DNA of 41,855 nt, taken from Candidatus Woesearchaeota archaeon. Its GTDB lineage: Archaea; Nanobdellota; Nanobdellia; Woesearchaeales; WJKL01. The position numbers and the translations under genes were made by a program. The stretch covers positions 1 through 41,855 of the forward strand of contig WJJM01000016.1 of the NCBI GenBank assembly GCA_014729675.1. The letters run 5' to 3'. The notes under the pieces were generated by a model that was given only the letters and a program-made list of their open reading frames with translations, was not told the DNA's origin and made no database searches. Below are positions 30,962-33,022 of this stretch, piece after piece; positions within the stretch are counted from its first letter, which is position 1; the number at the start of each line of letters is the position of its first letter.

Positions 30962-31003
30962 ATTTTTTTTATTTTTCTTTTTTTATTTTTCTTTTTTTAT
31001 ATT
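30962..31003. terminator. T-rich convergent terminator
   Basis: Three near-tandem units of TTTTTTATTTTTC follow the LamG stop and run into the last codons of the convergent cyclo-ligase gene, whose Lys-rich end they encode in reverse. It would terminate the plus-strand transcript. Confidence 0.5.
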
Positions 31004-31558
31004 ATAACAATCTTTTTCTGTTATTATCATGTCTAACTTGATATCATGCTTTTCAGAAGGAACTTTTTCTATAAGCTGTCTTTCAAAGGCTAAGGCTATC
31101 TTCAATGTTCTTTTAGATTTTGAGAAAAGCCGGTCATAAAATCCAGCTCCATAACCTAATCTGTTTCCTTTGAGATCAAATGCTATGCCTGGAGCAATAA
31201 CAACATCATGTTCTTTTACATCTAATGTTCTTGTATCTCCCAAGGGTTCGTATATGCCCCACCTGCTCTGCTTCAATCTTTTGATGTCTTTGTGAGAGAT
31301 GTTATAGAGCTCAAGATCCTTGTTTTTTGTTTTAGGCAAAGTCAAAGTCTTGCCAATCTCTAAGATGTCATGGATCATGCCAAAAGTATAGACTTCAGAC
31401 TGAAAAGATGCATAGCAGTTTATGACTGAATTTTTAGATATTTCTTCAAGAGAAAAAAGATTGTTCTTTATATCTCTGCTTAGGCTTAAAATTTCATCTT
31501 CTTCAATATCATCTCTTGAATCTCTTGCTTTTTTCCTAAGCTCTTTTTTTAATGTCAT
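30983..31558 (-). CDS. 5-formyltetrahydrofolate cyclo-ligase
   Basis: Converts 5-formyl-THF to 5,10-methenyl-THF using ATP (MTHFS, also called Fau/YgfA). 191 residues, normal length. Visible motifs: KKELRKKARDSRDD at the start, YEPLGDTR, the APGIAFDLKGNRLGYGAGFY block with its glycine-rich NRLGYGAGFYDR loop, and a C-terminal HDIKLDMIITE. The start overlaps the stop of hisS by 4 nt (ATGA), so the two are cotranscribed and probably share the RHH-linked promoter of hisS. Folate metabolism coupled to histidyl-tRNA charging has no obvious functional logic and may be simple operon packing. Confidence 0.93.
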   Translation of the reverse strand: MTLKKELRKKARDSRDDIEEDEILSLSRDIKNNLFSLEEISKNSVINCYASFQSEVYTFGMIHDILEIGKTLTLPKTKNKDLELYNISHKDIKRLKQSRWGIYEPLGDTRTLDVKEHDVVIAPGIAFDLKGNRLGYGAGFYDRLFSKSKRTLKIALAFERQLIEKVPSEKHDIKLDMIITEKDCYNIKKEK

Positions 31559-32988
31559 AAAAGATCTAAACTTAATTTTTCTTCTTTTCCTGACTTCATA
31601 TCTTTTACTGAGAACAGTCCTGCTTTAAGCTCATCTCCTCCTATGAATATTACTTTTTTTGCATTTAGAGAATTTGCATATTTCATCTGATTTCCTACAT
31701 TTCTTTCATTTAAGTCATATTCAACCTTGTATCTTTTCCTTAGCTGCTTTATGATCTCTAATGATTTTTCTTTTGTATCTCCTATCATGACTACAAAATA
31801 ATCAGGGGCTATGTCTGCTGCGGGAAGAAGGTCTTTTTCTTTTAACAATAATGAAAGAGTGGAGTAGCCCATGCCGAAGCCAGTTGCTGGAGTGGATGCC
31901 CCGTCATAAAGCTCGACAAGATTGTCATATCTTCCACCTCCTGCTAATGCTCTGAACTTCTCCTGCTTATCAAATATCTCAAATACTGTCCCTGTATAAT
32001 AAGCTAAGCCTCTAGCGACAGAGATGTCAAACTTGAAATATCTCTTGTCTATCATGGATGTCACTGCTTTAAGCTCTTCAAGCCCTTCTTTAGCCATCTT
32101 GTTAAGCTTAAGCTTTTCAATATCCTCTAATGTTTTGCATTTTAGGATGTCTCTTATTTTATTGTAGTCTGCCTTTATCCTGCTGAGCTCCTTCTTAAAC
32201 TCTTCGGGAGTTATTTTTGGAGATTTATCTATAATTCTTACAAGCTCTTCAAGCTTGTCTTCTTTTACTATAGACAATAACAAGCCCTGCAATAATTTCC
32301 TGTTGTTTATCTTAACAAAGAAATCTTTATCTGTTAATCCTAATTTTTTTAAGCACTGTATTGCTAAGTTTATGACTTCTGCATCTGAGTTCGGATTCTC
32401 AGAGCCAAAGAGTTCAACAGAAAGCTGATAGAACTCCCTTAATCTTCCTGCCTGAGGCCTTTCATAACGCCACATCCTGTTTAAAGCATACCATTTTACA
32501 GGCTTTGCTATTGATTTCTGCTTTTCAAGGAACATACGGGTTATTGGAACTGTTAGATCAAACCTCAATCCAAATTTTTCGTCTCCTTTCTGCTCCAAAG
32601 TAAAGATTTGCGTCAATATTTCCTGTCCTGATTTTTTAGTCAATAAGTCTAGAGTTTCAAAAGCAGGGCTTTCAACTTCCTGAAAATTGAATGATCTTGC
32701 TGTTTTTCTTAATACAGAGAATATCTGCTCTCTTATAGAATAATCTTCAGGATATAAATCTGATGTTCCTGTTGGTTTTTGGAATGATTCTTTGATTTCT
32801 TTCTGTATCTGTTGTTTAACTTTTTCTGCTTCTTTGAGTTCTAATTTTCCGCCTGCTCCTGTTATTAATCTTCTGACTGCATCCCTTACGCATTCTGAAG
32901 AATTTGGATAGATTCCTTTATCTACTAATGATTTTATCTGTTCTACAAGTCCTTCTGTGAGTCTTATTTGTATTGTTTGCATTACCAT
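31555..32988 (-). CDS. hisS: histidyl-tRNA synthetase with N-terminal ribbon-helix-helix domain
   Basis: Class II synthetase charging tRNA-His. Residues 1 to about 45 form a clear ribbon-helix-helix DNA-binding domain of the CopG/antitoxin kind (MQTIQIRLTEGLVEQIKSLV, NSSECVRDAVRRLI). A Lys/Glu-rich linker (45-70) leads into a full HisRS from KPTGTSDLYPEDY on. Motif 2 is RYERPQAGRLREFYQ (about 174-188), the HisRS signature is ARGLAYYTGTVFE (about 325-337), motif 3 is ALAGGGRYDNLVELYDG onward, and the C-terminal anticodon domain spans 396-477. The reading frame is unbroken, so the fusion is real in this assembly. Short repeats in its own promoter suggest autorepression. It is followed by the cyclo-ligase gene. 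Confidence 0.94.
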   Translation of the reverse strand: MVMQTIQIRLTEGLVEQIKSLVDKGIYPNSSECVRDAVRRLITGAGGKLELKEAEKVKQQIQKEIKESFQKPTGTSDLYPEDYSIREQIFSVLRKTARSFNFQEVESPAFETLDLLTKKSGQEILTQIFTLEQKGDEKFGLRFDLTVPITRMFLEKQKSIAKPVKWYALNRMWRYERPQAGRLREFYQLSVELFGSENPNSDAEVINLAIQCLKKLGLTDKDFFVKINNRKLLQGLLLSIVKEDKLEELVRIIDKSPKITPEEFKKELSRIKADYNKIRDILKCKTLEDIEKLKLNKMAKEGLEELKAVTSMIDKRYFKFDISVARGLAYYTGTVFEIFDKQEKFRALAGGGRYDNLVELYDGASTPATGFGMGYSTLSLLLKEKDLLPAADIAPDYFVVMIGDTKEKSLEIIKQLRKRYKVEYDLNERNVGNQMKYANSLNAKKVIFIGGDELKAGLFSVKDMKSGKEEKLSLDLL

Positions 32989-33022
32989 TGTAATGTATTT
33001 GTAATGTAATTAGTATATAAAA
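32980..33022 (-). promoter_or_regulatory. hisS promoter with repeated operator-like sites
   Basis: The minus-strand TATA (TTTTATATA) is at 33014-33022, 26-34 nt before the ATG (32986-32988). Between them and over the start, the plus strand reads CATTAC (32980-32985), GTAATG (32990-32995) and GTAATG (33001-33006). The last two are part of a perfect 10-bp direct repeat TTGTAATGTA spaced 11 bp, one helical turn, and the first two form a palindrome. This is the pattern of an RHH operator array. Confidence 0.6.

What the first reader, a model, noticed from the sequence alone, without database searches (positions are those of the whole stretch)
31555..32988. Histidyl-tRNA synthetase fused to a ribbon-helix-helix DNA-binding domain
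An intact RHH repressor domain sits at the N-terminus of an otherwise complete HisRS in one unbroken frame. I know of no described synthetase carrying an RHH antitoxin-type domain. It would let the enzyme dimerise on DNA and sense its own abundance, tRNA or amino acid state, coupling histidine charging to transcription.
Basis: partly seen in the sequence, partly recalled or inferred. Interest (0 to 1): 0.88.

Follow-up and report, generated by a model that had tools for sequence, protein, structure and literature searches.

The report
Histidyl-tRNA synthetase with DNA-binding head
In a group of uncultured archaea, the enzyme that loads histidine onto its tRNA carries a built-in DNA-binding domain whose predicted binding site lies across the start of the enzyme's own gene, so the enzyme very probably switches its own gene.

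Summary
The fusion is real. ORF 31555-32988(-), 477 aa, is a ribbon-helix-helix (RHH) domain (aa 1-44), a linker and a complete HisRS (aa 68-477). Twelve of 352 genomes of the order carry it. It is the only full HisRS found in 10 of these 12 (incomplete) genomes; the window's genome and one relative have a second, unfused HisRS.

A three-half-site operator, CATTAC-N5-CATTAC-N4-GTAATG, lies between TATA box and start codon and runs into codons 2-3 (window 32980-33006). Over 352 genomes at <=1 mismatch it occurs 21 times: 20 overlap the start of a gene with this RHH type (8 fused hisS, 12 others). The 21st precedes tRNA-His-hisG in G002, which carries the fusion. Unfused hisS promoters lack half-sites (0 of 41; fused 12 of 12). 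RHH residue 5 (Thr/Val) covaries with the first operator base.

Head and enzyme have separate histories: the fusion occupies five HisRS branches, and two relatives share 98% of the head but 33% of the enzyme, with a remnant of the other enzyme type downstream in one.

Best reading: a PutA-like autoregulatory enzyme. Promoter recognition is strongly supported by comparison; repression and tRNA/histidine sensing are inferred. I found no precedent for a synthetase.

The parts
31555..32988 (-). RHH-HisRS fusion gene (hisS), 477 aa
   Evidence: same architecture in 12 of 352 order genomes
32857..32988 (-). RHH DNA-binding head, aa 1-44; predicted reading-head residues T5, Q7, R9 on the beta strand
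   Evidence: Pfam RHH_1; weak alignment to NikR puts T5/Q7/R9 on NikR residues 3/5/7 (E 0.054); T5/V5 covariation with operator
32788..32856 (-). linker, aa 45-67, predicted helical (aa 52-68)
   Evidence: low-confidence AlphaFold2 model; linkers of the other fused proteins listed
31555..32787 (-). complete HisRS body (catalytic core and anticodon-binding domain), aa 68-477
   Evidence: TIGR00442 over the equivalog cut-off; WRYERPQAGRLREFYQ, RGLAYYTGTVFE and AGGGRYD present (aligned to solved HisRS)
32980..33006 (-). operator CATTAC-N5-CATTAC-N4-GTAATG overlapping the start codon; unique in this genome at <=2 mismatches
   Evidence: window shuffles: mean 0.01 matches at <=3 mismatches;
33013..33022 (-). 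TATA-box-like element TTTTATATAC, centre about 29 bp before the ATG, so the mRNA is probably leaderless
   Evidence: sequence; a TATA-like element at a similar place before the other fused genes, by eye; archaeal consensus recalled
30983..31558 (-). 5-formyltetrahydrofolate cyclo-ligase, overlaps the hisS end by 4 bp; probably co-transcribed and so under the same control
   Evidence: co-transcription is inference

Best explanation
This is a single-chain autoregulatory enzyme: an otherwise ordinary archaeal HisRS with a dedicated RHH transcription-factor head. SHOWN BY COMPARISON: the head belongs to an archaeal RHH family whose genes often carry one and the same operator across their start codon, and fused hisS genes have this operator while unfused hisS genes do not. 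INFERRED: the RHH pair of a HisRS dimer reads one CATTAC half-site, and two or three dimers bind side by side on one face of the DNA (half-sites 10-11 bp apart) between TATA box and start, blocking TBP/TFB/RNA polymerase, so the enzyme represses its own leaderless mRNA. INFERRED, less sure: histidine starvation relieves repression because uncharged tRNA-His draws the HisRS body away from DNA or changes the pairing of the heads. In one genome (G002) a second site before tRNA-His-hisG-hisI probably extends the control to histidine supply and tRNA-His.
For: (1) At <=1 mismatch the 27-bp operator has 21 matches in 352 genomes of the order; 20 overlap the start of a gene with an RHH match (8 RHH-HisRS, 12 others); the backward control pattern has none. 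The 21st is in G002 (an RHH-HisRS genome), before tRNA-His(GTG)-hisG-hisI-M20-hisB. (2) All 12 fused genes have the operator at or just before their start within 3 mismatches (5 exact, 3 with one, 2 with two, 2 with three); the only other match at <=2 mismatches in the 15 genomes searched is the G002 his site. (3) Half-sites in -70..+12: 12 of 12 fused, 0 of 41 unfused hisS (Fisher 3.7e-12); non-coding part alone 11 of 12 against 0 of 41. (4) Residue 5 of the RHH predicts the base before ATTAC (last 45 nt and first 12 nt of the gene): with Thr5 46 of 46 promoters have C-ATTAC, with Val5 1 of 13; T-ATTAC 2 of 46 against 11 of 13. (5) Where the second codon of Thr5 genes is Val it is GTA in 43 of 45, against 193 of 623 Val codons in the window's open frames of 150 codons or more: DNA-level constraint at the start. 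(6) Head and enzyme recombine: fusion on five separate HisRS branches; G237/G238 heads 98% identical, bodies 33%; a 48-aa C-terminal remnant of the other HisRS type lies downstream in G238.
Against: Nothing was measured: no binding, expression or aminoacylation data. The sign of regulation (repression) rests on site position only. At 3 mismatches the pattern is not above its backward control (26 against 22 matches in 15 genomes), so the G236 and G099 sites count only for their place; G099 has three direct half-sites and no palindrome over the start. The short palindrome alone is less telling: with one mismatch G000 has 2 places against 3 for the control, and exact with N4-5 it has 8 places against 3 in 15 genomes. 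Only 1 of 12 fused genomes has a clear site before his/tRNA-His genes; tRNA-His regions looked at in G000, G003, G236 and G239 show no convincing site. In G000 and G003 a second, unfused HisRS would escape the control. The tallies are not corrected for relatedness. Head dimerisation on HisRS could not be modelled; the monomer model is poor (mean pLDDT 68.9).
Confidence: 0.8

Rival explanations
1. The enzyme regulates at the RNA level: the palindrome CATTAC-AATG-GTAATG folds over the start codon of the mRNA and the protein binds that hairpin, as E. coli ThrRS does with its mRNA (recalled).
For: The exact inverted repeat brackets the start codon in 6 fused genes (G000, G002, G003, G037, G239, G279; in G035 it lies just upstream).
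Against: The TATA spacing predicts a leaderless mRNA lacking the 5' arm; outer half-sites occur in direct as well as inverted orientation at 10-11 bp spacing, G099 has three direct repeats and no hairpin, and stand-alone RHH genes carry the same element. This fits DNA better than RNA.
Confidence: 0.06
2. The head is a passive DNA anchor, dimerisation aid or extra tRNA-binding patch that does not regulate hisS.
For: Most HisRS of the order lack it, including that of G001 in the same family.
Against: Half-sites are at 12 of 12 fused and 0 of 41 unfused hisS promoters, and reading-head residue and operator base covary. A passive patch would not be expected to keep a promoter site.
Confidence: 0.1
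3. The head is a former type II antitoxin (VapB/ParD-like) captured from a toxin-antitoxin locus and still neutralises a toxin.
For: TIGR02606 ParD-type match, 29.4 bits, below its cut-off of 46.2; a PIN-domain gene lies directly upstream of the fused gene in G238.
Against: No toxin gene next to the window gene; none recognised by eye beside the stand-alone relative in G190, which lies next to an SRP-receptor-like gene. Apart from G238 I noticed no PIN gene beside a fused gene in the ORF lists, but these were not scanned for toxins.
Confidence: 0.05
4. Assembly or annotation artefact: two separate genes joined.
For: The genome is a fragmented assembly (72 contigs).
Against: Eleven other genomes have the fusion in one frame without a stop.
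Confidence: 0.01

Closest known systems
PutA (RHH-proline dehydrogenase/P5C dehydrogenase) of enterobacteria (recalled; one PutA paper seen in a listing)
   Same: N-terminal RHH in one chain with a metabolic enzyme; autoregulatory promoter binding
   Different: Enzyme is an aminoacyl-tRNA synthetase, host is an archaeon, the site overlaps the start codon, switching ligand unknown
RbkR, archaeal riboflavin kinase fused to an HTH domain (recalled; title seen in a reference list)
   Same: Archaeal enzyme plus DNA-binding domain regulating its own pathway
   Different: HTH instead of RHH; different pathway
E. coli alanyl-tRNA synthetase as repressor of its own gene (Putney and Schimmel, recalled)
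   Same: A synthetase binding its own promoter
   Different: AlaRS has no dedicated transcription-factor domain (recalled); here the domain and operator look like a portable unit
CdrS, haloarchaeal RHH regulator (PMC8406309, passages read)
   Same: Archaeal RHH of the same broad type (NF058555 match 29.4 bits, below its cut-off of 100); its ChIP sites include one beside hisB
   Different: Stand-alone, gene 3 nt before ftsZ2, 15 of its 18 sites lie 41-110 nt upstream of the TSS
TrcR of Anabaena, repressor linked to a tRNA operon (PMC10272220, search listing only)
   Same: A repressor tied to tRNA supply, in a paper whose text names the RHH fold
   Different: Nothing in the listing suggests an enzyme

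Membership tests
Histidyl-tRNA synthetase (hisS) | Equivalog-level profile match over the full core and anticodon domain | tested here: met
   TIGR00442 381.8 bits, cut-off 286.75, aa 70-473; HGTP_anticodon aa 398-475
Histidyl-tRNA synthetase (hisS) | Class II motif 2 arginine and HisA/HisB signatures kept | tested here: met
   WRYERPQAGRLREFYQ, RGLAYYTGTVFE, AGGGRYD aligned with solved HisRS; roles of the residues recalled
Histidyl-tRNA synthetase (hisS) | Charges tRNA-His | not testable with these tools
   Indirect: only full HisRS found in 10 of 12 fused genomes, which are 74-96% complete
HisZ (ATP-PRT regulatory subunit) | HisRS-like core without anticodon domain | tested here: not met
   Anticodon domain present; hisZ TIGR00443 203.9 bits, below its cut-off of 271.65
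RHH (Arc/MetJ/CopG) DNA-binding proteins | RHH profile match | tested here: met
   PF01402 23.1 bits over 20.5; three stand-alone relatives 25.1-38.5 bits
RHH (Arc/MetJ/CopG) DNA-binding proteins | Dimer with intertwined beta ribbon in the major groove | not testable with these tools
   Monomer model gives helices 12-26 and 34-43 but no strand, low confidence
Autoregulatory (PutA-like) enzyme | DNA-binding domain and complete enzyme in one chain | tested here: met
Autoregulatory (PutA-like) enzyme | Cognate operator in the enzyme's own promoter | tested here: met
   By comparison only; no binding data
Autoregulatory (PutA-like) enzyme | Substrate or ligand state switches DNA binding | not testable with these tools
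   -
Type II antitoxin | Adjacent toxin gene | tested here: not met
   Window neighbours are HhH-GPD (endonuclease III-like) and 5-FTHF cyclo-ligase; a PIN gene is adjacent in G238 only as far as seen

The most novel reading that the evidence does not exclude
A portable 'charging sensor': the RHH head with its start-codon operator forms a regulatory cassette that turns whatever HisRS lies behind it into a tRNA-His/histidine-responsive transcription factor for hisS and, in some lineages, for tRNA-His and histidine biosynthesis. The synthetase body is exchangeable (five HisRS branches, one apparent in-place body swap with a remnant), so the selected trait is the link between the synthetase and its promoter. 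It would be the first synthetase that I know of with a dedicated transcription-factor domain.
Probability: 0.4. Interest if true: 0.9.

Novelty: new variant of a known kind. Interest (0 to 1): 0.8.

Why it matters
How archaea match synthetase levels to demand is poorly known: T-boxes are described for Gram-positive bacteria (passages), and I know of no archaeal equivalent. Here one polypeptide is both the charging enzyme and, very probably, the regulator of its own gene, with a short operator readable from sequence, so the question becomes directly testable with one protein and one 27-bp DNA. The same data suggest a specificity code (Thr5/Val5 with C/T) for a family of archaeal RHH regulators, and a natural case of a regulatory domain kept while the essential enzyme behind it is replaced.

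Tried and rejected
Assembly artefact: rejected (11 other genomes). HisZ: rejected. Toxin-antitoxin unit: not supported at this locus (one relative by eye). RNA hairpin control: considered, disfavoured (leaderless geometry, direct-repeat variants). General control of tRNA-His/his genes: clear site only in G002; G000, G003, G236 and G239 looked at without convincing sites. The tRNA-His search with the G002 gene matched 10 of 15 genomes, several only as short tRNA pieces. Fusion outside the order: no frame over 400 aa among the 19 non-order places in an even sample of 371 phylum genomes, a sample that includes order members. The 12 fused genomes are those that pass E <= 1e-75 with the whole protein or E <= 1e-6 with the head; fusions with a more diverged head would be missed by both. 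The AlphaFold2 model was too weak for a fold search, so none was run. Extra N-terminal sequence before HisRS in G058 looks like in-frame repetitive sequence, not a domain (by eye). Rfam on four loci gave only tRNAs. For CATTAC-N5-CATTAC the tool's backward control is the same pattern and so worthless. Rows dropped: unfused loci L021, L022 and L027 (partial or at contig ends) from the 41-promoter control and the tree; of further unfused hisS matches no loci were fetched. 40 of the 55 non-fused RHH places and 13 of the 19 non-order places were fetched for the covariation table. Of the resulting 65 rows, 6 have neither Thr5 nor Val5. The head tree (44-residue heads) is weak: the twelve heads group together with support 0.51. 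The HisRS tree's bootstrap had not fully settled.

Full report
OBSERVATION. Window 31555-32988 (minus strand) is one open frame of 477 aa. Pfam finds RHH_1 at aa 6-42 (23.1 bits, cut-off 20.5), the HisRS catalytic domain at aa 74-374 and the anticodon-binding domain at aa 398-475. NCBIfam hisS scores 381.8 bits against 286.75. Before the core there are only M1 and M3. The gene overlaps a downstream 5-formyltetrahydrofolate cyclo-ligase by 4 bp and follows an HhH-GPD DNA-repair gene (endonuclease III-like) after 35 bp.

RELATIVES. In the 352 held genomes of the order, the full-length query (E <= 1e-75) and the 44-aa head alone (E <= 1e-6, frame over 400 aa) give the same 12 fused genomes: G000, G002, G003 (one family), G236-G239 (one family), G098, G099, G037, G279 and G035 (contig-cut). 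Public names come from matching contigs: Candidatus Woesearchaeota MAGs WJKL01000103.1 (G002) and DUFL01000013.1 (G279). G001, in the window's own family, has HisRS without the head. A hisS profile search finds one full HisRS (cut short by the contig end in G035) in 10 of the 12; G000 and G003 have a second, unfused one, in G000 near hisG and a HisIE-like gene (by eye). The 12 genomes are 74-96% complete, so a second copy could be missed. In most carriers the fusion appears to be the working HisRS.

OPERATOR. Reading the promoters showed CATTAC or its reverse complement GTAATG, or close variants, at 10-11 bp intervals between the TATA box and the start, the last half-site usually lying in codons 2-3 (ATG GTA ATG). 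In the window the site is 32980-33006. The palindrome CATTAC-N4-GTAATG occurs once exactly in the 1.44-Mb genome; with one mismatch there is one further place, against 3 places for the backward control. CATTAC-N4/5-GTAATG has 8 places in 15 genomes, 7 at or next to an RHH-hisS start (control 3 places). CATTAC-N5-CATTAC has 7 places, all at RHH-hisS starts, two of them in G099 (its control is worthless because the pattern reads the same backwards). The 27-mer with up to 3 mismatches is at or just before all 12 fused starts, and at <=2 mismatches nowhere else in the 15 genomes except one G002 site; counting 3-mismatch matches, pattern and control are alike (26 and 22), so only the stricter matches carry weight on their own. 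Over all 352 genomes at <=1 mismatch there are 21 sites and no control match; 20 sites overlap an RHH gene start.

THE ODD SITE. The 21st site is in G002, on the contig of its RHH-HisRS. It precedes tRNA-His(GTG), hisG, PRA-CH (hisI), an M20 peptidase and IGPD (hisB); a HAD/nucleoside-hydrolase gene and then RHH-HisRS follow on the same strand. The site lies upstream of a TATA-like element rather than on it (by eye), so it could act either way. In G035 the fused hisS lies beside IGPD (hisB), two His_biosynth (hisA/hisF-like) genes and a GATase (hisH-like) gene. The other tRNA-His regions looked at (G000, G003, G236, G239) have no convincing site.

CONTROLS. Half-sites in -70..+12: fused 12 of 12, unfused hisS 0 of 41; in non-coding DNA only 11 of 12 against 0 of 41. 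In 65 RHH genes (12 HisRS fusions, 2 metallophosphoesterase fusions, 51 others) residue 5 predicts the base before ATTAC: C with Thr5 in 46 of 46 promoters, against 1 of 13 with Val5; T with Val5 in 11 of 13, against 2 of 46. That test includes the first 12 coding bases; counting half-sites upstream of the start only, 39 of 46 Thr5 promoters and 1 of 13 Val5 promoters have one (tallied). Residue 5 falls on NikR residue 3 in a weak alignment (E 0.054), the first of the three base-reading positions of RHH strands (recalled). Where the second codon of Thr5 genes is Val it is GTA in 43 of 45, against 193 of 623 in the window's long open frames. These counts are not corrected for relatedness.

EVOLUTION. 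On a tree of 53 HisRS bodies the fusion label needs five changes, forced by well-supported branches, and none of 200 bootstrap trees makes it one group; changes may be gains or losses. The heads nevertheless group together, weakly (support 0.51). In one family G237 and G238 have heads 98% identical and bodies 33% identical. Downstream of the G238 gene, overlapping the end of a LAGLIDADG ORF, lies a 48-aa C-terminal piece of the other HisRS type, 67% identical to G237. The simplest reading is that the enzyme body was replaced in place while head and promoter stayed.

MECHANISM. Shown by comparison: head and operator occur together on hisS and covary in the family. Inferred: RHH pairs of HisRS dimers sit on two or three adjacent half-sites and block the basal promoter. 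Also inferred: uncharged tRNA-His or histidine state could set the occupancy. Not shown: binding, repression, sensing, aminoacylation. The AlphaFold2 monomer (5 sequences, mean pLDDT 68.9) shows helices at 12-26, 34-43 and 52-68 and is too weak for more.

KNOWN OR NEW. I searched open-licence PMC papers for 'ribbon-helix-helix' with histidyl-tRNA synthetase and fusion (1 paper), with aminoacyl-tRNA synthetase (3), and with tRNA synthetase and 'fused to' (7); for aminoacyl-tRNA synthetase with DNA-binding domain, 'autoregulat' and archaea (11); histidyl-tRNA synthetase with Woesearchaeota (0); and tRNA synthetase with DNA-binding domain and DPANN (1). Judged by titles and abstract starts, none describes such a fusion. 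A synthetase review (PMC7373986, term search) has no hit for 'DNA-binding', 'autoregul', 'transcriptional repress' or 'own gene'. Subscription papers and preprints were not searched. PutA, RbkR and E. coli AlaRS are the nearest working analogues (recalled). Hence: a new variant of a known kind, autoregulatory enzymes, and the first case I know of for a synthetase with a dedicated transcription-factor domain.

Noticed in passing
L130 (G273:C41:37709, 341 aa) and L182 (G376:C1:66022, 338 aa): The same RHH type is fused to a calcineurin-like metallophosphoesterase, again with CATTAC/GTAATG half-sites over the start: a second enzyme with this head.
   Followed up: partly
L033:160-300; L211 upstream of tRNA-His-hisG; L208:190-260: Short reading frames with a Cys-Ile/Leu-His motif precede tRNA-His in three genomes (peptides ending ..GCIHFKQIIHSK..VDCIHC..AGCLHSK; read by eye): possible leader peptides or a conserved RNA element of his genes; no Rfam match except tRNA.
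   Followed up: partly
L067:3718-5056 (G238): A LAGLIDADG ORF overlaps a 48-aa remnant of the other HisRS type downstream of the fused gene: a homing element may have taken part in the body swap.
   Followed up: partly
L067:6747-7136 (G238): PIN-domain (VapC-like) gene directly upstream of the fused hisS.
   Followed up: no
G000:C65:145-1680 (L072) and G003:C1 (L073): Second, unfused and divergent HisRS (511 aa in G000); in G000 near hisG, HisIE-like and rps7/rpoA2-like genes, in G003 near a HisA-like gene (several names by eye).
   Followed up: partly
L122 and L120 upstream regions: Two stand-alone RHH genes (G190, G188) carry a second array of GTAATG half-sites upstream of the TATA box, like the G002 his site.
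   Followed up: no
Val5-type RHH genes, e.g. L138, L170, L171: Stand-alone RHH genes with Val5 have a matching but different site, GTAATAC/GTATTAC, before their start.
   Followed up: partly
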